Of a DNA stretch of 12,240 nt, positions 1,091-12,240 are shown in pieces. A model generated the notes under the pieces. The model saw only the letters and a list, made by a program, of their open reading frames with translations, was not told where the DNA came from and searched no databases. Both the position numbers and the translations under genes were made by a program. Numbering within the stretch: the first letter of the stretch is position 1; each line of letters starts with the position of its first letter. The DNA is from an uncultured Fibrobacter sp. (GTDB lineage Bacteria > Fibrobacterota > Fibrobacteria > Fibrobacterales > Fibrobacteraceae), in contig CALATK010000216.1 of the NCBI GenBank assembly GCA_937891805.1, positions 1-12,240 on the forward strand, in the 5' to 3' direction.

Positions 1091-1569
1091 TCAACACCTC
1101 CCTTTGTTATATCGAACAGGACGGCAAATACCTGCTGCTTCACCGCATCAAGAAAAAAAACGATATCAACAAGGACAAGTGGATTGGCATTGGCGGAAAA
1201 TTCGAAGAAAACGAATCTCCCGAAGACTGCATTATTCGCGAAGCCCGCGAAGAAACAGGTTTGACCATCGTCCCCAAATATAGGGGCATTGTCACTTTCA
1301 TTTCAGACGGGATGAACGAGACAGAGTTTATGCACCTGTTCACGTCCAAAGAATTTAGCGGAACAGTGCGGGAATGTGACGAGGGCGTTCTGGAATGGGT
1401 GTCGAAAGAAGACGTAATCAAGCTCCCCCACTGGGATGGCGATATGATTTTTCTTTCGTTGCTGAATCAGGATGTTCCCTTCTTTTCGTTGAAACTCACC
1501 TACCGGGGAAGCACACTCGTTGAAGCCATTCTAGACGGCAAAAACGTCGATTACAGGGATTTTATTTGA
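1087..1569 (+). CDS. Nudix hydrolase (MutT-like, 8-oxo-dGTP diphosphatase type)
   Basis: This cytoplasmic protein of 160 residues probably cleaves a nucleoside diphosphate linked to another moiety. The complete Nudix box GX5EX7REUXEEXGU runs from G37 to L59, with G37, E43, R51, E52, E55, E56 and G58 all present; the glutamates bind the catalytic Mg2+. The N-terminal strand 'CYIEQDGKYLLLHR' and the KWIGIGGK lead-in resemble 8-oxo-dGTP diphosphatases of the MutT/YjhB group, so nucleotide-pool sanitation is the likeliest role, though substrate cannot be settled from sequence. I chose the GTG at 1087 because it forms a GTGA overlap with the upstream stop and has GGAAGG (1074-1079) 7 nt upstream. 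An in-frame TTG at 1021 lies well inside the preceding gene. The 3' end overlaps the convergent outer-membrane gene by 8 bp. Confidence 0.85.
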   Translation: MINTSLCYIEQDGKYLLLHRIKKKNDINKDKWIGIGGKFEENESPEDCIIREAREETGLTIVPKYRGIVTFISDGMNETEFMHLFTSKEFSGTVRECDEGVLEWVSKEDVIKLPHWDGDMIFLSLLNQDVPFFSLKLTYRGSTLVEAILDGKNVDYRDFI

Positions 1570-3016
1570 ATTCCGGCGCAATGGTCAAAATCAGGTTGAC
1601 CCCGTGCAACCCATGGAAGCCCACCTGGGCACGGAAAAGGTATAATTCAGGCATCCTGACGCGAATACCGAAACCCCAGGAATTGTAGAATCGGTCAAAG
1701 CTGAACTCTTTTATCTTTTCGGCGTGCATAGCATATTCGTCAAACAGCACCCCATCTACAAAACGATCAATGGGCCAACGGTATTCGGCGCTAAGTCCCA
1801 TGATATGATATGCCGACCATTCGTCCCCGTAACCTCGCATTGGATACCGGGCATTCATTGTCGGGAAGGCGTTGAAGGGAGCTCCGCCCTTGTCCATTTC
1901 CCACATGTTTTCCATTCTGAACTGGAGTGCAACGACTCTTCGTTCAAGGAGCGTTTCCCTGATGTTTTCGGGTCTCCATACGCGAAGGGCCTCGTCCCAG
2001 GAAAAATCCGTGTAGAACTTGCGGCTTTGCCTGGCCTCTCTTGCCGAAAGAATATACTGTTTTGCCTTTCCAAAGTAGAAGTAATGCTGCCAGATAAGGC
2101 TGTTGTAGATGTAGTCGTGACTCTTGTCGCTCTTGGGAACTTTCCCGCTTCGCTGAGAGTCAAATGAATCATACCTTATTCCCCCATACTCCGGCGCAAA
2201 ATTGTATTCTCCGGAGAGGATGACTCTGTCCCCTTTCGAAGGAGCGTACGGAAAGTCCAAATCGTCATACACCAGAGATAGAGCTACGGAATACTGTTTT
2301 GAAGATTGATATAGACCACGATCGGCGATAGAAAAAACTGCATCGTTCAAAATACTGTCTTTTGAATTGTCCGGGAGATCTGCATCGATAAACATCTGGC
2401 TCGTTGACAGTTCCAAATTCAATTTCTTGGACTTGGTCAAGGGAGCTCCGATTCTCCATTGAAAGCTCATGGTTGAATCGGGTTGAATAAAGGCTTCCTT
2501 GGTTCCTGGAATAATAAAATTGGCGTCGCTGTCCCAATACAACTTGTAACGGAAGCCAACAAACAACGGCAAGCCAAAAGGTTCCTGCTTGGTGTAACGG
2601 TCCGAAAGGTACAGGTCACCGTTAGCATAATAACTACCCTGCAACACCAGATAATCCCTATTAAAGAGAATACTCCGGTGACGGTATGTCATACCCAACT
2701 GCGTTTGGGTTCCTGGTTTTAGGTTCATTGTGGGATAGACAAAAATTTTCTTGTCTTCACCAAAGGACATCAACTCTACGGACTTTTCAACAACACCGTT
2801 GTTCAAGGCATACCGAACAGGGGCGGACAACGGATAAACGGCAGCATTCAATACGGGCTGTAAAATATGGGCATAAAGCCAAGAATCGTCTTCACCCACC
2901 GTTTCTTCGGCAAATGCTGGTTGAAACAAAAGAAGGAATAGCAAAAGAACTAAAGGTCTTATGAACCTTTGACGATTCCATGCGTTACTCCCCTTGTTTC
3001 TATGACCCAAATACAT
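1562..3016 (-). CDS. BamA/Omp85-like outer-membrane beta-barrel protein without POTRA domains
   Basis: This is a 484-aa protein read from the ATG at 3016; an in-frame TTG at 3028 would add four residues. A long, Arg-rich n-region is followed by a Leu-rich core and a likely cleavage after QPAFA (about residue 36). The mature protein is dominated by alternating amphipathic strands rich in Tyr, Trp and Phe. Near the C-terminus YPMRGYGDEW (about residues 391-400) matches the (V/L)RG(F/Y) signature of the Omp85 superfamily. The last strands contain SWGFGIRVRMP and end LILTIAPEFK, with a penultimate aromatic residue. Only about 60-70 residues precede the first strands, so no POTRA repeats fit, unlike BamA or TamA. 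It may be a substrate-specific porin or surface-antigen type barrel. It is transcribed divergently from the RND exporter across a shared promoter region. An alternative out-of-frame start is noted in the findings. Confidence 0.7.
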   Translation of the reverse strand: MYLGHRNKGSNAWNRQRFIRPLVLLLFLLLFQPAFAEETVGEDDSWLYAHILQPVLNAAVYPLSAPVRYALNNGVVEKSVELMSFGEDKKIFVYPTMNLKPGTQTQLGMTYRHRSILFNRDYLVLQGSYYANGDLYLSDRYTKQEPFGLPLFVGFRYKLYWDSDANFIIPGTKEAFIQPDSTMSFQWRIGAPLTKSKKLNLELSTSQMFIDADLPDNSKDSILNDAVFSIADRGLYQSSKQYSVALSLVYDDLDFPYAPSKGDRVILSGEYNFAPEYGGIRYDSFDSQRSGKVPKSDKSHDYIYNSLIWQHYFYFGKAKQYILSAREARQSRKFYTDFSWDEALRVWRPENIRETLLERRVVALQFRMENMWEMDKGGAPFNAFPTMNARYPMRGYGDEWSAYHIMGLSAEYRWPIDRFVDGVLFDEYAMHAEKIKEFSFDRFYNSWGFGIRVRMPELYLFRAQVGFHGLHGVNLILTIAPEFK

Positions 3017-3026
3017 TCTAGGACAC

Positions 3027-3032
3027 AATATA
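3027..3032 (-). promoter_or_regulatory. Putative -10 element (TATATT) for the outer-membrane barrel gene
   Basis: Read on the minus strand, TATATT occupies 3032 to 3027, followed by a 10-nt gap to the ATG at 3016. It forms the left half of the 14-bp palindrome AATATAATTATATT (3027-3040). A second match, TATAAT at 3038-3033 on the same strand, is an alternative. No clear -35 box is seen. Confidence 0.4.
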
Positions 3033-3034
3033 AT

Positions 3035-3040
3035 TATATT
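3035..3040 (+). promoter_or_regulatory. Putative -10 element (TATATT) for the RND exporter operon, possibly leaderless
   Basis: TATATT lies exactly 7 nt before the ATG at 3048, with no Shine-Dalgarno sequence in the gap. It forms the right half of a perfect 14-bp palindrome shared with the divergent gene. A -35 box would fall at about 3012-3017, on the start codon of the divergent gene, so the two promoters probably cannot be occupied at once. This is inferred from spacing and sequence only. Confidence 0.45.
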
Positions 3041-3047
3041 TCAAGTG

Positions 3048-5486
3048 ATGTTTTCGCTAGTCACAAAAATCATCAAAAGAGCGACTCAATATCCGATAGC
3101 CATATTGGTTATATCTTTTGTCCTAGCGTTACTTTCTATCTATCCCGTCCAGAATTTGCGGTGGGAACTTCAGTTACAGGACGCCCTGACCTCAAAGGGG
3201 AGCTCGCCCCTTTACCATCAAGAAATAGAAGAAAAATTCGGGGCCCTTGGAAGCCTGACCGTTGTCATGGAGTCCGAAGACAGCACCCTGAACTATTCCG
3301 CCGCACGGTCGTTATACCAAAGATTGCAAGCTGACTCGACCATTCATTTTGCCGAATTTGAAACGGATATCGAGTTCTACAAGAAGCACAGTCTGCTCTA
3401 TATCGAAGAAGATGACCTGGACACGGTCGCCAATAGAATCCAGACGTTGCAAGAAAAAATCACTCTGGCCCACAACCCCCTATATGTGGACATGTCCGAC
3501 GAGTCACAGACTTCAGTCGATTCAAATGACAACAAGACCAACCAGGCCATTCTTGATTTTACTGATCTGGAAAACAAGTATTTCACCATCCTTTCGAGAA
3601 CCCACGCCAGCAGTGACGGAAAAATTCGGGTTGTTGACATCTATCCTAAAAATTCCCTATCCGACTTACAGGCCAACCGTGACTTGCTCGGCAAAGTCAA
3701 GTCATTCTTCAGGGACAATCCTAAATATGGCTCCATAAAAGTCTATTACACCGGAAAAGTCTACGACACCATCCAGACGGGGCGGACGCTACTCCCCGAG
3801 GCAAAATTTGCAGGAAAAATCACCGCCCTGTTCATCTTGCTGCTTTTCATTATCCATTTCTATAAGCAACCCCAGCTAATACTGGTATCGGCGATTCCAG
3901 TGGGGCTCCCGATCCTTTACACCCTGGCCCTGGCCTGGCTGCTGTATGGACGCATCAATGTATTCACCCTGTTGCTTGCCCTGGTTCTGCCCGGACAGGC
4001 CTGTCAGGTTATTACCCATGTGCTGAACCGATACTTTATAGAACGGTCCAGAAACTTGAGTCCCAAGCTTTGCATTGAGAGCGCCGTTCTGGGGATTGGT
4101 CCATCTACAGCGGTATCGGCCGGAATCATGGCTTCGTTTTTCGCCTGCATGATTATCGTGCCTGTGGCCGGGATCCGCGAGCTCGGCATCCTCGGTTCCA
4201 TAGGCTGCATTTTAAACTGGATTTTCACCATACTTATCTCTACATCTCTCCTGCACTTGTTCCAGCGAAAAAAAGCCTTCTCTGTCAACAGCTTCCGTTT
4301 CCAGAGAGTGTTCAAGATAACGCTCCTTTCTTACAGGACCAACGGAATCATTATAGCCGTTCTTTCCGTATTGAGTCTTGCGGCGTTGATTTATGGCGGT
4401 GTGAACCTGAAATTCCTTTATGATTTCTGGCAGACTGAACTCCCCCGCGAAGAACGGGTGGCGGATTCGTTAATCGCAAAAACAGGTTTCCCTCAATATG
4501 ACCCCGTCATCGTCATGATGTCAAAAGACAATGGCGATGAACTTTATAGAAGGTTCAAACAGCTCAAGTCTAAGGGCAAGATTCCTAATATTGAGAACGT
4601 TTATACATTAAGCGCTTTCTCGCCAAAGAATCAGGTCAACAAGAAAGAAAAGCTTAAAGAAATCCAAGCTTTCTTTACTAACGACATCTTGCAGCAGCTG
4701 GATTCTGCCGAAAAGCTGAATGTCTCGAAGATTTCTGAGATTCTTTACCGATTCGATTTTGATGAAGACGACCAACCCGAAAATATCCGCAAGAAGTTTA
4801 GCGACATCGACGGGAATGCAGGGGCCTTTGCCTTTATCTTTTCGAACATCAATCCGAACAACGGGCTGGAATGTAGGCATCTGGCACACGACCTAGCCCT
4901 CCTAAATGGCTCGGATGATAGCACCTACAAGATGACGGGCGTGCCTGTTGTGCGGGCAAAGTTCTTGGACCTGGTGCTATCTAATGTCGACAAGACCATT
5001 TTCTTGGGGTCTGTTCTGGTGTGGTTCTTCTTGCTGTTCTTCTACAATCGTTTCAGCAGGGCCATTTTTACTATCCTCCCTTCCCTATTTGCCATGAGTT
5101 GGCTATTGGCCCTAATCAACGTCCTTGGAATCAAGCTTTCTGTCTATAGCACTATCGCCTTTCCGATTTTAATTGGAGCAAGCGTTGACGGTTCTATCCA
5201 GTTGTGGACCGCCTATTACGAAAAGCGGAAAGGGACCGCCCTCACCCTTTTGCAAGGCAAGGCTTTCTCTATTTCCATAAGCCAGATGGCGGCCATGATT
5301 GGAACCTACGGTTTGCTGATTTCATCGCATCCGGGCCTAAAAAGCATCGGGCAAATTTCGTTTATCGGACTGATTTGCATCTCAATCGCCCAGTTCACAA
5401 TGTTTTCGTTAATTGCAGGTTCTCTAGACAACTACAGAATCCTGCAAAGGCAAAAAAAAGAAAATGCCCAAAAGTCTCTCCAATAG
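3048..5486 (+). CDS. RND superfamily (MMPL-type) exporter
   Basis: This inner-membrane protein of 812 residues has the duplicated RND layout. TM1 (about 16-35) is followed by a large periplasmic loop to about 255 and TM2-6 (256-405). TM7 (about 430-450) is followed by a second periplasmic loop to about 648 and TM8-12 (650-795). In the second half GASVDGSIQLWTAYYEK matches the G-x-G-V-D-x-x-I-h motif of MMPL/HpnN-type transporters, including the membrane Asp (D714) expected in proton relay. The equivalent first-half segment, LPGQACQVITHVLNRY, lacks an Asp. Members of this group export lipids, hopanoids or other hydrophobic molecules; the cargo here is unknown. A GTG at 3045 is in frame, but the ATG fits the promoter spacing. 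The 3' end overlaps the aminotransferase gene by 23 bp. The divergent neighbour is an outer-membrane barrel and could be a partner, which is conjecture. Confidence 0.8.
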   Translation: MFSLVTKIIKRATQYPIAILVISFVLALLSIYPVQNLRWELQLQDALTSKGSSPLYHQEIEEKFGALGSLTVVMESEDSTLNYSAARSLYQRLQADSTIHFAEFETDIEFYKKHSLLYIEEDDLDTVANRIQTLQEKITLAHNPLYVDMSDESQTSVDSNDNKTNQAILDFTDLENKYFTILSRTHASSDGKIRVVDIYPKNSLSDLQANRDLLGKVKSFFRDNPKYGSIKVYYTGKVYDTIQTGRTLLPEAKFAGKITALFILLLFIIHFYKQPQLILVSAIPVGLPILYTLALAWLLYGRINVFTLLLALVLPGQACQVITHVLNRYFIERSRNLSPKLCIESAVLGIGPSTAVSAGIMASFFACMIIVPVAGIRELGILGSIGCILNWIFTILISTSLLHLFQRKKAFSVNSFRFQRVFKITLLSYRTNGIIIAVLSVLSLAALIYGGVNLKFLYDFWQTELPREERVADSLIAKTGFPQYDPVIVMMSKDNGDELYRRFKQLKSKGKIPNIENVYTLSAFSPKNQVNKKEKLKEIQAFFTNDILQQLDSAEKLNVSKISEILYRFDFDEDDQPENIRKKFSDIDGNAGAFAFIFSNINPNNGLECRHLAHDLALLNGSDDSTYKMTGVPVVRAKFLDLVLSNVDKTIFLGSVLVWFFLLFFYNRFSRAIFTILPSLFAMSWLLALINVLGIKLSVYSTIAFPILIGASVDGSIQLWTAYYEKRKGTALTLLQGKAFSISISQMAAMIGTYGLLISSHPGLKSIGQISFIGLICISIAQFTMFSLIAGSLDNYRILQRQKKENAQKSLQ

Positions 5487-6660
5487 AACCCTGAATATTG
5501 CCGCCTCCCTGACAGTTGCCATTGACAGCCTTGCCAAGAAAATGATTGCCGAAGGCAAGGACGTGGTTAGCCTTGGTGCCGGCGAACCGGATTTTCCGAC
5601 TCCAGAACCTATCTGCAAGGCGGCGCATTGCGCCATAGACAGCGGAAAGACCCGCTACACCGCTCCCGTCGGCATTTTGGAATTGCGCAAAAAAATCTGC
5701 GAAAAGCTCTCCAAAGAAAACGGGCTCCGTTATGAACCCGAACAGATTACGGTCACCAGCGGCGCAAAGCATGCCGTGTTCAACTCCCTTGCCGCCCTGA
5801 TAAACCCCGGTGACGAGGTGATCATCCCCGCCCCCTACTGGGTGACTTATCCTGAATTGGTGAAGTGGCTTGGAGGCGTTCCCGTATTTGTTGACGGATT
5901 GCAGGAAAATGATTTCAAGATAACGGCCGAACAGCTGAAACAAGTTTGTAATGACAAGACCAAGGCCATTTTAATGAACAACCCTTGCAACCCCACCGGT
6001 TCCTTGTATAGCCGCGAGGAACTGGAGGCCTTGGCAAAGGTCATTGTCGAAAACGACCTCTACTGCATTTCTGACGAAGTCTATGAATACTTCGTTTATC
6101 AGGGAACTTTTACCAGCATCGCTTCTATTGACGGAATGAAGGAACGTTCCATTGTCATCAACGGCTTTTCCAAGTCTTACTGCATGACCGGCTGGCGCGT
6201 AGGCTACGACGCCTCCCCCGCTCCCATCGCCAAAATTATCGGGAAAATCCAGGGGCAAGCTACGCACCACCCGAGCAACATCGCCCAGTACGCCGCCTTG
6301 GGCGCTCTAGAGATGGGAAATGCCGAGTCTCTCAAAATGAGGGAGGTTTTCCGCAAGCGCAGGGACTTTATGGTGTCAAAAATCGGCGATGCCCTGGGGC
6401 AAAAGCTGCGCGCTCCTGAGGGAGCCTTTTACCTGTTCGCCCCTGTGAGCTCCGTCTATGGTCAAAAAACGCCTGACGGAAAGACCATCAAGGGGTCCGT
6501 AGATTTGTGCGAGTTCATCCTTGAAAGTCAAGGGCTTGCCATTGTACCGGGAGCAGCTTTCGGAAACGACAACTGCGTGCGTTTTTCTTATGCTGCCAGC
6601 GACGAAAATTTGGAAAGTGCCTGCAGGCGTTTCGAAGCTGCCATCAGGAGCTTGAAATAG
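5464..6660 (+). CDS. Class I PLP-dependent aminotransferase (aspartate/prephenate aminotransferase type)
   Basis: This cytoplasmic enzyme of 398 residues is of usual length for fold-type I aminotransferases, subgroup I-gamma (thermophilic AspC/AatA-like). Landmarks seen in order are GAGEPDFPTPEP (38-49), SGAKHA (99-104), PYWVTYP (124-130) with the ring-stacking Trp126, NNPCNPTG (172-179) with N176, ISDEVYEYF (202-210) with D204 and Y207, and NGFSKSYCMTGWRVGY (233-248) with the Schiff-base lysine K237 and R245. The substrate-carboxylate arginine R373 lies in CVRFSYA. Aspartate plus 2-oxoglutarate is the likeliest reaction; prephenate or other amino acids are possible and cannot be told apart here. 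The ATG at 5464 lies inside the end of the RND gene (23-bp overlap) with only a weak AAAGG about 12 nt upstream, so translational coupling is likely. The next gene starts 24 nt later. Confidence 0.88.
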   Translation: MPKSLSNRTLNIAASLTVAIDSLAKKMIAEGKDVVSLGAGEPDFPTPEPICKAAHCAIDSGKTRYTAPVGILELRKKICEKLSKENGLRYEPEQITVTSGAKHAVFNSLAALINPGDEVIIPAPYWVTYPELVKWLGGVPVFVDGLQENDFKITAEQLKQVCNDKTKAILMNNPCNPTGSLYSREELEALAKVIVENDLYCISDEVYEYFVYQGTFTSIASIDGMKERSIVINGFSKSYCMTGWRVGYDASPAPIAKIIGKIQGQATHHPSNIAQYAALGALEMGNAESLKMREVFRKRRDFMVSKIGDALGQKLRAPEGAFYLFAPVSSVYGQKTPDGKTIKGSVDLCEFILESQGLAIVPGAAFGNDNCVRFSYAASDENLESACRRFEAAIRSLK

Positions 6661-6684: not shown

Positions 6685-8748
6685 ATGTTCCATATAGTCA
6701 CACCTGAAAAAGGAAAGCCGTTTACCATCGGACGAAAGGAGGATTGCGACATCCGATTCTCCGACGTTTTCGTTTCCAGGGAACATGCGACCATAGAATT
6801 TGCCGATGGTTCATGGAATCTAAAGAACCTTTCAAGCAATAGCGTCACCCAGGTCAACGATGAAGACGTCTCTGAAATTTCTCTGAAAGATGGCGACATC
6901 ATCGTCATCGGGCTTCACCGCTTGAGAGTGACTTTACGGGGCGACGTCCTTTCCCTGCTGCTTCTGGATGCATCTGATTCTACGGAATCATATACCTTGA
7001 CCTCAGAAGACCAGGAGATTACACTGGAAGGTGAAAACGGGAACACCGCGTTGAAGGCGAAACTTTTGGATTCTGGCTGCAGACTCCATTTTGCAAAAAA
7101 ACTGACGGATTCCGACGGCAAAAAGACACACGAAATACGCCTGGATGCAGGCGACACCATCCGTCTTGAAAACTTCGAGTTTTCGTTCCAGGCTGGCGAC
7201 CTGCTGGTCAAGCGGGTCATGTCCGGATTTGACGTGACGCTTAGGAATCTAGATGTCTATGCCGGCAAAAAAGAGCTGTTGTCCGACATAAACCTCTACC
7301 TGCCCGCAGGAGAAATTCTTGCCATTATCGGACGCTCCGGCCAAGGAAAATCTTCGCTCCTAAAACTGCTGAAAGGGGAATACACCAAGTCTCCCGAAGG
7401 CGAAGTCCTTTATTCCGGGCTGGATTACCGCAACAAGGAAATCCGCAAACGGATAGCCTTCTTACCGCAGGACCCGGCGCTCCACAAGGACTTGACCGTC
7501 ATGGAAACGCTCCTGCATGGGGCGAAAATTTCCATGGACAAAAAGGAGCTGAAGGAATCTTTCCAGGAACGGGCTGACCGAATTTGTGAACTGTTCGGAC
7601 TCACCGCCCGCAAGAACAACCCCGTAAAGACTCTGAGCGGTGGCGAAATGCGAAGGCTTGCCTTGGCCCAGGAACTTATCGGCTCTCCTGGCCTGATTGT
7701 GCTGGACGAGCCCCTTTCGGGCTTGGACCCCTACAACGCAAACATTCTGTGCACCCACCTGAAACAGCTGGCCTTCTTGGGCCATACGGTAATTCTCACC
7801 ACCCACAGCTACGAGGCCCTGAATATCGCCAACAAGGTGTTGGTTATCCATCAGGGAAAACAGGTGTTCTATGGTTCACGCGAAGAATCGGTGGGGTTTT
7901 TCAATACCAAAAGTGCCGAAAGTATTTTAGCGGGATTGAACGACGACTCCTTTATCCGTTGGGCCTCTTCGAAAAAATCTATGGAAGTAGCTGAAGGCGA
8001 AAAAAAGAACCGAACCTATTTCAAGACCGATAAAAAATCGACTCTGCTTCCTTACCATATCCAGTTGATTCTCAAGCAGTGGTTTCGCGACAAGGGAAAA
8101 CTCTTTGCCCTGTTTATACAGCCCTTTATCCTCGGATTTGTCTTCTCCCAGATTTTTTCCAACAATTCGCCTCTTGGGATTGTAAGCTTTGCCTTAATCC
8201 TCTGTGCCAACTGGTTTGCCCTTTCCCTTTCGATTCGAGAAATCGTCCAGGAAAAAGAAATCTTGACTAACGACTTGCGAAAAGGCATGTCCATCGCCCC
8301 CTACCTGCTTGCCAAAACGGGAATTCCCTCCGTTGCAGCCTTTATGCAGACCTTCGTTATTTACGGTTTTATCTCCTTCAAGGTGACGATGCATCCGACC
8401 TTGCCGATTCTTGCCCTTGTGTTTGCCCTGACGGTGATTCCTGCCGTGAGCATGGGTTGCCTTGTCAGCGCATTTTCCAAGAATCCCGGACAGGCAAACG
8501 CTTTCTTGCCCCTGATTATCATTCCGCAGGTGGCCTTGGCCGGAGCCCTTGTTCCCCTGGACCAGATGCAGGCTATCGGAAAGGCTCTTTCCTTTGCCAT
8601 TTGGTCAAGGTTCGACCAGGACGCCCTTCTGGATTTACTTTTGGACAGGCCTTTCGAGAGCCTGAACTTTGTAATGCTGATGACACTCATCATTATATTT
8701 TGTATTATAACCTTCGTCAATTTACACCTCCTTAGAAAAGCAAAATGA
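6685..8748 (+). CDS. FHA-domain ABC transporter (ATPase and permease fused)
   Basis: This is a 687-aa half transporter of NBD-TMD order, like ABCG or Rv1747 proteins. Residues about 1-85 form a cytoplasmic FHA domain with FTIGR (G16, R17), SREH (S31, H34) and N52/N58, which are the expected phosphothreonine-binding positions. Residues about 88-176 are beta-rich and may be a degenerate second FHA copy. The ABC ATPase spans about 183-400 with Walker A GRSGQGKSS (216-224), Q-loop Q262, signature LSGGE (317-321), Walker B LIVLDEP (337-343) and H-loop H374, so it should be catalytically competent. Six hydrophobic segments follow at about 472-493, 498-517, 540-562, 572-597, 604-625 and 661-683 (ABC-2 type permease). 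It would work as a homodimer; cargo and direction are unknown, with export likely from the family. The downstream kinase gene overlaps it by 4 nt and probably phosphorylates a partner of the FHA domain, or the transporter itself. Confidence 0.85.
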   Translation: MFHIVTPEKGKPFTIGRKEDCDIRFSDVFVSREHATIEFADGSWNLKNLSSNSVTQVNDEDVSEISLKDGDIIVIGLHRLRVTLRGDVLSLLLLDASDSTESYTLTSEDQEITLEGENGNTALKAKLLDSGCRLHFAKKLTDSDGKKTHEIRLDAGDTIRLENFEFSFQAGDLLVKRVMSGFDVTLRNLDVYAGKKELLSDINLYLPAGEILAIIGRSGQGKSSLLKLLKGEYTKSPEGEVLYSGLDYRNKEIRKRIAFLPQDPALHKDLTVMETLLHGAKISMDKKELKESFQERADRICELFGLTARKNNPVKTLSGGEMRRLALAQELIGSPGLIVLDEPLSGLDPYNANILCTHLKQLAFLGHTVILTTHSYEALNIANKVLVIHQGKQVFYGSREESVGFFNTKSAESILAGLNDDSFIRWASSKKSMEVAEGEKKNRTYFKTDKKSTLLPYHIQLILKQWFRDKGKLFALFIQPFILGFVFSQIFSNNSPLGIVSFALILCANWFALSLSIREIVQEKEILTNDLRKGMSIAPYLLAKTGIPSVAAFMQTFVIYGFISFKVTMHPTLPILALVFALTVIPAVSMGCLVSAFSKNPGQANAFLPLIIIPQVALAGALVPLDQMQAIGKALSFAIWSRFDQDALLDLLLDRPFESLNFVMLMTLIIIFCIITFVNLHLLRKAK

Positions 8749-10256
8749 GTCCCGAGAATCAATCAAATACTTTCCCTCGCCCCTTTAACGAAAACTACGA
8801 CCTGATAGATACTCTCGGACGGGGAGGCATGGGCTACGTCTATAAGGCCCTGGACAAAAGGCTCGGCCGCGAAGTGGCCCTGAAGGTGTTGGACTCATCT
8901 TCTGACGAAGAGGCAATCCAGAGGTTTTATCTGGAAGCCCAGGCCATGAAAGAACTGGACCACATGAACATTGTCCAGATTTTCGACTTTGGAAAGCAGG
9001 CCAACCAGCTTTTTATTGCCATGACCTATGTGAAGGGCGTGGCGCTTTCCGACATTTTGCAGAAGCAGAGCAAACTCCCCTTCTCTTCTATTGAGGTGAT
9101 TATCAAGCAGATTGCCCGCGGTCTTTTGTATGCCCACAACCGCGGTATTGTCCATAGGGATGTGAAGCCCTCCAACATCATGATTACCCACGATAACCGT
9201 GTCTATATCATGGATTTCGGGATTTCTTACATCCAGGAGATGGAAAAACAGCGCCTTACCAGAACGGGCATGACCATGGGCACGCCCGAGTATATGTCTC
9301 CGGAGCAGTGCCACGGCGAAGAAGTGACCCTCCAGTCTGATATCTACAGCATGGGCATCATTTTGTTTGAAATGACCTGCGGACAGCTCCCGTTCAACGG
9401 CAACAAGCCCATAGAGATTGCCATTCAGCATGTGCAGAAACAACCGCCTGACCCGCGACAGTTCAGGCCGGACATGCCAAAGGGGCTTGCAGAGATGATA
9501 CTCAAATGCCTCAAGAAAAAGCTGAACGAGCGTTTCCACGACATGCAGGAGTTTTTGGATACCTGCGATGCGGTTTTCCCGCAAAAGGACACCCGAAGCA
9601 CAGGCAAAATTACAGGACGGAAAACTTCTTTGTTCAGCCATGGCAGAGAATCCATTGCCGAAGTGGCCACCAAGATTCCTTCTAAGGCAAAAAAAATCCA
9701 CCGCAAGCTTACGGCTCTCGCCCTTTCCATATTCCCGCTGATTATCATCTTGATGGTGCTCTTGATGCTCACTCACAAACCCGAAAGCACCCTTCGAGAT
9801 TTAGAGTGGGACGAAGCGGTCGGTAATTTCGAGACCAAGGCCCTGGAAAATGACGGTGGTATAGATTATGGTCTAGACAACCTGAATGACGGTGACCTGA
9901 AGACGGCATGGCTCAATAGCATGCCCCTGAAGCCGCAGAATCCCGTTTTGAGCCTTTATTTCAAGAAAAACACATTGGTCACCCACCTGGGAATCGCCAT
10001 CGGGTACCAAAAATCCGTTGACGACCTTTTTGGTGACCGGTTCCGTATTTTCAAGAAACCGAAAACTCTTACGGTAGAAACCGCTGATGGATTCAAGCAA
10101 AAAATCAAGCTGGAAAATATCAAGGGCATGCAGTACCCCACCATCCAGGCCATCGAAACCACAGAACTCAAGTTCTATCTGGAAGACATCTACGAAGGCG
10201 AAAACGAAGATTTCGCCATTTCGGAAGTACGGCTCCTGGGGATGGAGGTTGATTAG
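8745..10256 (+). CDS. Hanks-type Ser/Thr protein kinase with extracytoplasmic glycan-binding-like domain
   Basis: This is a 503-aa membrane kinase. The N-terminal kinase domain (about 18-278) has the Gly-rich loop LGRGGMGYVYKA (24-35), catalytic Lys K47, helix-C E64, HRDVKPSN (137-144), DFG (157-159) and GTPEYMSPEQ (179-188). Threonines T172, T174 and T177 in the activation loop are likely autophosphorylation sites. A basic linker leads to a transmembrane segment at about 325-343. The C-terminal part (about 370-500) lies outside the cytoplasm; features such as LNDGDLKTAW, IAIGYQKS, RPKT-like KPKTLTVE and FAISEVRLLG resemble the NADase-type glycan-binding (galactose-binding-like) domain. That gives a receptor kinase that may sense an envelope glycan. 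The ATG overlaps the stop of the FHA-ABC gene (ATGA), indicating coupled translation. It is the last gene of the operon. Confidence 0.88.
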   Translation: MSPENQSNTFPRPFNENYDLIDTLGRGGMGYVYKALDKRLGREVALKVLDSSSDEEAIQRFYLEAQAMKELDHMNIVQIFDFGKQANQLFIAMTYVKGVALSDILQKQSKLPFSSIEVIIKQIARGLLYAHNRGIVHRDVKPSNIMITHDNRVYIMDFGISYIQEMEKQRLTRTGMTMGTPEYMSPEQCHGEEVTLQSDIYSMGIILFEMTCGQLPFNGNKPIEIAIQHVQKQPPDPRQFRPDMPKGLAEMILKCLKKKLNERFHDMQEFLDTCDAVFPQKDTRSTGKITGRKTSLFSHGRESIAEVATKIPSKAKKIHRKLTALALSIFPLIIILMVLLMLTHKPESTLRDLEWDEAVGNFETKALENDGGIDYGLDNLNDGDLKTAWLNSMPLKPQNPVLSLYFKKNTLVTHLGIAIGYQKSVDDLFGDRFRIFKKPKTLTVETADGFKQKIKLENIKGMQYPTIQAIETTELKFYLEDIYEGENEDFAISEVRLLGMEVD

Positions 10257-10346: not shown

Positions 10347-10775
10347 ATGAAAAATGAATCTGTGAATCGCAATTCGATGAAGTCCGTCAACCGCAAGAAG
10401 GGTAACGCCATCGAGACGGAGGCTTCGGCCTACCTGATGCGGAACGGTTATGAAATTCTGGACAGAAACTACGCCTACCGCGGAGGCGAGCTGGACATTG
10501 TGGCCCGAGACGGACAGACTGTTGTTTTCGTAGAGGTCAAGTCCGTGTGGACCGCTGGGCAAGGAAATCCTGCCGCCCGCGTCAATGCCCTCAAACAGCG
10601 TAAAATCTGGAACACTGCCTGCCATTACCTCTACACTCAAAAAGAAAAGGCCCCAAAAGGCTTTGACACACCCTGCCGTTTCGACGTCCTTTCTATTCGC
10701 GCTTACCAGAAGCCCATGCAGTTTGAACACTACAAGAACGCCTTCGAAGGGTCACAGGTGATTCCGCAATGCTAG
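10347..10775 (+). CDS. yraN: YraN family protein (UPF0102, endonuclease-like)
   Basis: This encodes 142 residues. The core RKKGNAIETEASAYL, followed by GGELDIVARDG (46-56), FVEVKS (61-66) and the C-terminal RFDVLSI (111-117), matches the YraN/UPF0102 family. E48, D50, E63 and K65 form a PD-(D/E)XK-like nuclease arrangement. The cellular role of the family is not settled; its fold relates it to Holliday-junction resolvases and restriction endonucleases. From the ATG at 10347 the protein has about 15 residues before the family core, with a repeated SVNR word (5-8 and 13-16). A start at 10377 would give 132 residues but lacks a ribosome binding site. The gene is bracketed by two copies of a dispersed repeat, so its transcription may be separate from the kinase operon. 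Confidence 0.85.
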   Translation: MKNESVNRNSMKSVNRKKGNAIETEASAYLMRNGYEILDRNYAYRGGELDIVARDGQTVVFVEVKSVWTAGQGNPAARVNALKQRKIWNTACHYLYTQKEKAPKGFDTPCRFDVLSIRAYQKPMQFEHYKNAFEGSQVIPQC

Positions 10776-11558: not shown

Positions 11559-12240
11559 TTAGTTTCCGTTGATGCAGCGGACAGAGTAGGCGTTGCCCTT
11601 GTTGTTCACAAGCTGTCGGACCATCTGGTCTGACATGCGGCCCATGGCCCAAAGCCAAATGGTTTCGTTCCTGCCGTTCTGGGACGACCAGAAACCCGCA
11701 TATTCGCCCATATCTTCGTAACGCACCGTCTTGGAACCGATCATCTTACGGTAGCCCGAAGAGAAAACCGTAAAGCCATATTCGTCTGTGCCGCCACCAC
11801 CGTGCCAGCCCGTAGTGGCCTTCAGTTTGCTTGCAAATGCACCGCATTTATCCACACCATCGTAGCACTGGGTGAGGCCCGTCAGCATGTCCTGCCATTC
11901 CCTGTCGCGGGGCAGATGCCAACCTTCGGGGCAAGCCTTGCGGGCTCCTTCTAAATCGTAAAGACGGCCACTACGGACACAGTAGTTGTCCTTGTCCTCA
12001 TAGCACCAGGAATGCCCGGGCACATCGTAATTTACGTTCTGGGCGAACCATTCACGGCCCTCGATCTTGATGGTCCTATAAACCTGACCGTCGCGGGGGT
12101 CCTTGAACTGGCTGGAATTGTCGCGGATGGTGGCTCGGTGTTCCTGTTCTTCGCGCCTGAAATTCACCAGCAGTTCGCGCTTGTACTTTTCGCCCTTTTC
12201 GTATTTCTTGTTCCATTCGTCCTGGGCTTTTTTGTTGAAG
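11559..12240 (-). CDS. FISUMP (Fibrobacter succinogenes major paralogous) domain protein, 5' end outside the window
   Basis: The frame stays open to the right window edge; 226 residues are visible and the true start lies beyond 12240. A GTG at 12167 is in frame but is probably internal, because coding sequence continues upstream (FNKKAQDEWNKKYEKGEKYK, charged and probably helical). The FISUMP domain covers about visible residues 45-226, with DGQVYRTIKIEGREWFAQN, the RLYDLEGARKACPEGWHLP signature, WQDML, TDEYGFTVFSSGYR, GFWSSQ and the end YSVRCINGN. Six cysteines (about 79, 87, 103, 125, 132 and 222) could form disulfides in an exported protein. The family is greatly expanded in Fibrobacter and related to formylglycine-enzyme/C-lectin-like folds; its function is largely unknown, with a cell-surface role often assumed. 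Signal sequence is not visible here. Confidence 0.88.
   Translation of the reverse strand, partial: FNKKAQDEWNKKYEKGEKYKRELLVNFRREEQEHRATIRDNSSQFKDPRDGQVYRTIKIEGREWFAQNVNYDVPGHSWCYEDKDNYCVRSGRLYDLEGARKACPEGWHLPRDREWQDMLTGLTQCYDGVDKCGAFASKLKATTGWHGGGGTDEYGFTVFSSGYRKMIGSKTVRYEDMGEYAGFWSSQNGRNETIWLWAMGRMSDQMVRQLVNNKGNAYSVRCINGN

What the first reader, a model, noticed from the sequence alone, without database searches (positions are those of the whole stretch)
6685..10256. Coupled FHA-ABC transporter and receptor Ser/Thr kinase module
The FHA-ABC half transporter and the Hanks-type kinase overlap by 4 nt, so they should be made together. FHA domains bind phosphothreonine, and the kinase keeps all catalytic residues plus threonines in its activation loop. 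In Mycobacterium the FHA-ABC protein Rv1747 is encoded beside kinase PknF and is regulated by it. A similar pair in a Fibrobacter-type diderm, with a different sensor domain, suggests a phosphorylation-gated export system that I do not know as described here. Cargo is unknown.
Basis: partly seen in the sequence, partly recalled or inferred. Interest (0 to 1): 0.75.

Follow-up and report, generated by a model that had tools for sequence, protein, structure and literature searches.

The report
FHA exporter paired with sensor kinase
A Fibrobacter bacterium carries an exporter with a phosphothreonine-reading domain whose gene overlaps that of a membrane kinase; the pair is kept through much of its phylum and looks like a variant of the known Rv1747/PknF pair of mycobacteria.

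Summary
An FHA–NBD–TMD half-exporter (6685–8748) overlaps by 4 nt an intact Hanks kinase (8745–10256). The pair is old in Fibrobacterota: in 73 of 80 fetched loci the kinase gene follows directly, and the other 7 sequences end within 162 nt of the exporter gene. Upstream neighbours differ between families, yet the pair stays together. In other phyla a kinase lies within 6 kb of 11 of 29 FHA-ABC genes, against 1 of 51 ABC genes without FHA.

(1) Outgroup members have two FHA domains, as Rv1747 does; in Fibrobacteraceae the second has decayed stepwise while FHA1 keeps Gly-Arg/Ser/His. (2) The kinase has a PknB-like core and a curated "NADase-type glycan-binding" ectodomain. (3) Dependence is one-sided: in the family all 93 genomes with the exporter also have the kinase, but 12 have the kinase without it, so the kinase probably has other targets.

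Best reading: a probably glycan-sensing kinase whose phosphothreonine is read by FHA1 of a partner exporter. Phosphorylation, docking and cargo are inferred. The neighbouring MMPL/Omp85 pair is separate. This is a new variant of the Rv1747/PknF kind, not a new kind.

The parts
6685..8748 (+). FHA-ABC half-exporter, 687 aa: FHA1, decayed FHA2, nucleotide-binding domain, ABC-2 membrane domain
   Evidence: ORF; Pfam; full-length matches in 36 of the 37 same-genus genomes searched
6724..6912 (+). FHA1 domain (residues 14-76), phosphate-binding Gly16-Arg17, Ser31, His34 intact; the usual Asn-Gly is Ser-Val
   Evidence: Pfam; G16, R17, S31, H34 in 37 of 37 Fibrobacter rows and 15 of 15 other Fibrobacteraceae rows, G/S/H in 23 and R in 22 of 24 outside rows (1 row has gaps); solved relatives incl. 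Rv1747 FHA-1
6934..7224 (+). FHA2-like segment (residues 84-180), decayed: no GR, S or H left
   Evidence: HHalign genus segment vs other Fibrobacteraceae 99% probability, these vs outgroup FHA2 96%, genus vs outgroup FHA2 78% over only 32 columns; unrelated controls under 1%; mean identity 0.31 vs 0.57 for FHA1
7279..7716 (+). ABC nucleotide-binding domain (residues 199-344)
   Evidence: PF00005 103.7 bits
8071..8577 (+). ABC-2 type membrane domain (residues 463-631)
   Evidence: PF01061 58.2 bits; hydrophobic segments
8745..10256 (+). Receptor-type Ser/Thr kinase, 503 aa, 4-nt ATGA overlap with the exporter gene
   Evidence: overlap of 4 nt in 34 of 35 Fibrobacter and 15 of 17 other Fibrobacteraceae pairs
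8796..9539 (+). Kinase catalytic domain (residues 18-265)
   Evidence: PF00069 192.5 bits; PknB/StkP are closest solved structures; best NCBIfam model PknB_PASTA_kin 341 bits, below its cut-off of 450
9258..9284 (+). Activation-loop threonines T172, T174, T177, T180
9714..9770 (+). Single transmembrane helix (residues 324-342)
   Evidence: hydropathy scan
9837..10232 (+). Periplasmic NADase-type glycan-binding (discoidin-like) domain (residues 365-496)
   Evidence: PF25302 47.7 bits; NCBIfam NF047619 69.1 bits, cut-off 38; profile matches solved chain 7ji1_A, E 9.2e-9
5464..6660 (+). Class I aminotransferase upstream (24-nt gap to the exporter); neighbour, not part of the module
10347..10775 (+). 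yraN (UPF0102), the most widely shared downstream neighbour

Best explanation
It is a two-gene phosphorylation module of the Rv1747/PknF kind. Shown by sequence: a single-pass kinase with an intact PknB-like catalytic core, conserved activation-loop threonines and a periplasmic NADase-type glycan-binding domain is translated together with an ABCG-like FHA-NBD-TMD half-exporter whose FHA1 keeps the phosphate-binding residues; the pair was present with a two-FHA exporter early in Fibrobacterota and one FHA decayed in Fibrobacteraceae. Inferred: a periplasmic glycan or envelope ligand drives kinase dimerisation and trans-autophosphorylation on T172/T174; FHA1 of each half of the exporter homodimer docks on a phosphothreonine, most simply the kinase's own activation loop; docking and/or phosphorylation then raises or lowers ATPase-driven export of an envelope lipid or polysaccharide. 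The kinase also serves other targets.
For: Domain calls (4, 31, 32, 75). Adjacency in 73 of 80 loci from 79 genomes, the 7 misses at sequence ends. The pair persists although the upstream gene differs between families (aminotransferase in Fibrobacteraceae, guanylate-kinase-like elsewhere). One-sided dependence: exporter never seen without the kinase ectodomain in the family (93 of 93). FHA1 phosphate-site residues invariant while FHA2 decays. Kinase within 6 kb of 11 of 29 FHA-ABC genes vs 1 of 51 ABC genes without FHA outside the phylum, Fisher p 3e-5. Precedent: Rv1747 is a PknF substrate in vitro, both FHA domains are needed for interaction in yeast two-hybrid, and PknF positively modulates it (PMC3908365, passages).
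Against: The kinase survives in 12 family genomes without the exporter. No specific co-divergence beyond linked genes: partial correlation FHA1-kinase 0.31, while an aminotransferase control gives 0.56. No threonine outside FHA1 and the NBD of the exporter is conserved in 95% of Fibrobacter, so an Rv1747-like phosphorylated linker is not evident. FHA1 lacks the usual Asn-Gly. Three of four outgroup kinases examined early (L069-L071) lack the ectodomain, so the ligand-sensing part is not universal. The glycan ligand, docking, phosphorylation and cargo are untested.
Confidence: 0.68

Rival explanations
1. The exporter's FHA1 reads a different phosphoprotein (as Rv1747 FHA-1 reads the stress protein Rv2623), and the neighbouring kinase is a general envelope kinase that supplies the phosphate indirectly.
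For: Rv2623 phospho-T237 binds Rv1747 FHA I (PMC5549992, passages). Kinase retained in 12 family genomes without the exporter. No conserved exporter threonine in the linkers.
Against: Neighbouring genes kept together through much of the phylum; only two FHA matches per Fibrobacter genome in the ten checked.
Confidence: 0.22
2. Housekeeping gene-order conservation only: the two proteins share an operon but do not interact.
For: They are in a run of conserved neighbours; mirror-tree gives no specific signal.
Against: Upstream context differs between families while the pair is kept; FHA-ABC genes are enriched near kinases in other phyla (11 of 29 vs 1 of 51); FHA1 phosphate-site residues invariant.
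Confidence: 0.07
3. One envelope-export machine: Omp85-like barrel, MMPL/RND transporter, FHA-ABC and kinase act together.
For: Adjacent in Fibrobacteraceae, with short spacings or overlaps.
Against: MMPL and the Omp85-like protein occur in all 12 g16 genomes, which lack the FHA-ABC, and there they lie on another contig than the kinase in the loci compared; the outgroup families with FHA-ABC mostly lack them.
Confidence: 0.03

Closest known systems
Rv1747/PknF of Mycobacterium tuberculosis
   Same: FHA-NBD-TMD half-exporter encoded beside a transmembrane Hanks kinase; FHA1 related by sequence (6cah, E 4.4e-5)
   Different: Rv1747 has two FHA domains joined by a disordered linker and forms phosphorylation-promoted condensates (PMC9312465, passages); here FHA2 is decayed and abuts FHA1. 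pknF is upstream of Rv1747, here the kinase is downstream. Ectodomain here is NADase-type glycan-binding (comparison with PknF's ectodomain not made).
FHA-ABC genes near kinases in Streptomyces, Rhodococcus, Brasilonema, Blautia, Faecalicatena
   Same: FHA-ABC with a kinase gene close by
   Different: Order and strand vary; found for a minority (11 of 29 within 6 kb) rather than nearly always
PknB/StkP PASTA kinases
   Same: Kinase core and TxT activation loop
   Different: No PASTA repeats; NADase-type glycan-binding ectodomain; NCBIfam PASTA-kinase cut-off not reached (341 vs 450 bits)

Membership tests
Rv1747-type FHA-ABC exporter | N-terminal FHA followed by NBD and ABC-2 TMD in one chain | tested here: met
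Rv1747-type FHA-ABC exporter | two intact FHA domains (both needed for PknF interaction in yeast two-hybrid) | tested here: not met
   one Pfam FHA stretch; FHA2 segment has lost GR, S and H. Hence filed as a variant
Rv1747/PknF module | exporter gene paired with a Ser/Thr kinase gene | tested here: met
Rv1747/PknF module | kinase upstream of the exporter in a two-gene operon | tested here: not met
   kinase is downstream here
Rv1747/PknF module | kinase phosphorylates the exporter | not testable with these tools
   needs a kinase assay; no conserved linker threonine found
Hanks-type (PknB-like) kinase | catalytic Lys, Glu, HRD Asp, Asn, DFG Asp | tested here: met
   86 of 86 rows
PASTA kinase | extracellular PASTA repeats | tested here: not met
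   no PASTA in Pfam scan; ectodomain is PF25302
NADase-type glycan-binding domain | score over curated cut-off | tested here: met
   NF047619 69.1 vs 38; PF25302 47.7 vs 27; glycan binding itself not testable here
ABCG-type half-transporter | NBD before TMD, closest named subfamily of the ABCG/WHITE kind | tested here: inconclusive
   order met; best NCBIfam model TIGR00955 160.6 bits, far under its cut-off of 736

The most novel reading that the evidence does not exclude
A PknB-like kinase that has a periplasmic glycan-binding domain in place of PASTA controls an envelope exporter by one-to-one FHA docking on the kinase's own phosphorylated activation loop. This would be a monovalent switch, unlike the two-FHA, condensate-forming control of Rv1747, reached by stepwise decay of an ancestral second FHA; the exporter depends on the kinase for its existence in the genome but not the reverse.
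Probability: 0.25. Interest if true: 0.62.

Novelty: new variant of a known kind. Interest (0 to 1): 0.42.

Why it matters
It places the Rv1747/PknF kind of control in a diderm phylum of fibre-degrading gut bacteria (genus Fibrobacter), with a harmless model protein pair for biochemistry. The phylum offers natural comparisons: exporters with two FHA domains, exporters with one, and lineages with the kinase alone. These make testable which FHA matters and whether the two-FHA condensate mechanism is essential.

Tried and rejected
MMPL/Omp85 as part of an export machine: rejected by their separate distribution. Mirror-tree co-divergence of FHA1 or exporter domains with the kinase: no signal above linked-gene controls. 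Conserved phospho-acceptor threonine in exporter linkers: none at 95% in Fibrobacter. Dedicated PP2C_2 phosphatase: found in 2 of 10 Fibrobacter genomes, while SpoIIE-type phosphatases occur in 9 of 10, so the eraser is undecided. Anti-phage defence: PADLOC matches are the generic kinase and ATPase domains; not pursued. Promoter scan: 8 sites vs 7.5 expected; terminator-like sites 20 vs 10.5 expected, mostly inside genes and not interpreted. A limit: only 6 candidates per genome were scored, so absence of the exporter in the 14 g14/g16/g19 genomes was rechecked with the FHA model: no FHA match there lies in a frame longer than 282 aa. In class relatives f3-f4, 12 of the larger FHA-bearing frames were fetched and none holds an ABC domain; the rest were not examined. 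Papers: searches; none of those listings shows an FHA-ABC/kinase pair described in Fibrobacter, and Fibrobacter + serine threonine kinase + FHA domain gave 0 papers; subscription journals are mostly not held.
Full report
What is there. The window is from the genus Fibrobacter: relatives of the exporter carry names such as Fibrobacter sp. and Fibrobacter succinogenes; its own assembly is not held. The 687-aa exporter and the 503-aa kinase stand at the stated coordinates, with FHA, ABC_tran and ABC2_membrane in the first and Pkinase plus NADase_transloc in the second. The stop of the first and the start of the second share ATGA. Upstream, an aminotransferase ends 24 nt before the exporter and an MMPL gene overlaps the aminotransferase by 23 nt; a barrel gene of the Omp85 superfamily is divergent; yraN and sua5 follow the kinase.

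Conservation. Searching 60 relatives with the exporter gave full-length matches in 36 of 37 genomes of the genus. A profile search of 167 genomes of the phylum matched 123; three of those (G040, G044, G054) cover only the ABC part, leaving 120: 76 of 80 in the genus, 17 of 31 in other genera of the family and 27 outside it, some as fragments (my count). I fetched neighbourhoods for 80 loci from 79 genomes: 36 of the 76 genus genomes, all 17 of the other family genomes (18 loci, one genome split over two contigs), and 26 of the 27 outside. The kinase follows on the same strand in 35 of 36, 17 of 18 and 21 of 26; all 7 misses end within 162 nt of the exporter gene. One of the 73 kinases (L118) reads as truncated, and two outside pairs have gaps of 268 and 330 nt. 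The 4-nt overlap holds in 34 of 35 genus pairs and 15 of 17 other family pairs, and in 0 of 21 outside.

Context. In the family the order is MMPL, aminotransferase, exporter, kinase, yraN, sua5. Outside it a guanylate-kinase-like gene (named by eye) lies upstream, in 19 of 22 loci and also in L069-L072; yraN is found downstream in 14 of those 26 loci. So the pair persists while the upstream gene differs.

The second FHA. In four outgroup exporters scanned, Pfam finds two FHA stretches; in six exporters of other family genera and in the window it finds one. Outgroup FHA2 has G, R, S and H in 23 of 23 rows. Other family genera keep R in 15 of 15 and G in 11 of 15, but S is Pro in 15 of 15 and H is Leu or Tyr in 15 of 15. 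In Fibrobacter (37 rows) none of these is kept. HHalign links genus to family segments (99%), family to outgroup FHA2 (96%), and genus to outgroup FHA2 more weakly (78%, 32 columns); unrelated segments give under 1%. FHA1 keeps G16, R17, S31 and H34 in all 52 family rows. Mean pairwise identity in the genus is 0.57 for FHA1, 0.31 for the FHA2 segment, 0.73 for the NBD, 0.63 for the TMD, 0.86 for the kinase domain and 0.74 for the ectodomain. The usual Asn-Gly of FHA domains is absent from FHA1 (Ser-Val in the window), a point against canonical binding.

The kinase. Its core is closest to PknB/StkP among solved structures. All five catalytic residues are identical in 86 of 86 rows, and T172 and T180 too; T172 and T174 align with PknB's TxT. 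The ectodomain passes the cut-off of the NCBIfam model named 'NADase-type glycan-binding domain-containing protein' and its profile matches solved chain 7ji1_A. The ectodomain is not universal: L072 has it, L069-L071 end after the membrane helix, L091 and L131 score under the Pfam cut-off and L101 has no match.

Who needs whom. In the family (111 genomes searched) the kinase ectodomain is found in all 93 genomes with the exporter and in 12 without it (G094, G160 and 10 of 12 of genus g16); 6 have neither. Two of the 12 match weakly (G098, G099), but their loci show the kinase itself at 37% identity. In three g16 loci the aminotransferase lies directly beside the kinase with no exporter between (L132, L136, L139). 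For G160 the contig begins 574 nt before the kinase, but no exporter was found elsewhere. An FHA search of the 14 genomes concerned finds FHA only in frames of at most 282 aa. These are drafts, some under 80% complete. The reading is that the exporter depends on the kinase, not the reverse.

Beyond the phylum. With models built from Fibrobacterota proteins, 29 have FHA-ABC (26 with two FHA) and 51 an ABC gene without FHA. A kinase lies within 6 kb in 11 of 29 vs 1 of 51 (Fisher p 3e-5) and within 1 kb in 6 of 29 vs 0 of 51. These loci are not phylogenetically independent and many are cut short. Of 17 plasmid records matched, I read the first four: a kinase lies near in Brasilonema, Streptomyces and Rhodococcus, none in Nostoc sp. 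C052.

What was tested against the reading. Co-divergence shows no specific signal. No conserved threonine lies outside FHA1 and the NBD of the exporter. Kinase-only genomes argue for other targets. MMPL and Omp85-like genes are a separate pair: present in 12 of 12 g16 genomes without the exporter, and mostly lacking outside the class where the exporter is present.

Verdict. What it works like: Rv1747/PknF. Membership: exporter architecture and pairing are met; two intact FHA domains and kinase-first order are not. It is filed as a new variant. Experimental facts about Rv1747 are from passages of PMC3908365, PMC5549992 and PMC9312465. A proteome paper on F. succinogenes, PMC6851124, was seen in passages: it does not contain the word FHA in its main text.

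Noticed in passing
window 1562-5486: A divergent Omp85-superfamily barrel and an MMPL/RND protein (best NCBIfam models HpnN and BstA, under cut-off) form a conserved pair of their own in the class, also where the FHA-ABC is missing; possibly lipid transport to the outer membrane.
   Followed up: partly
G001:C87:122649-122840 (L001) and counterparts: Each of ten Fibrobacter genomes has one further FHA match, in a frame of about 290-410 aa; its partner kinase is unknown.
   Followed up: no
L166, L171, L153: Firmicutes (Faecalicatena, Blautia, Eubacterium) carry two-FHA ABC genes with kinase genes close by, two of the loci also with kinase-FHA fusions.
   Followed up: no
Fibrobacter genomes: PP2C_2 phosphatase is missing from 8 of 10 Fibrobacter genomes although 3-6 Pkinase matches are present; SpoIIE-type phosphatases are found in 9 of 10.
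   Followed up: partly
window 11559-12239, - strand: FISUMP (Fib_succ_major) domain protein, cut by the window end.
   Followed up: no
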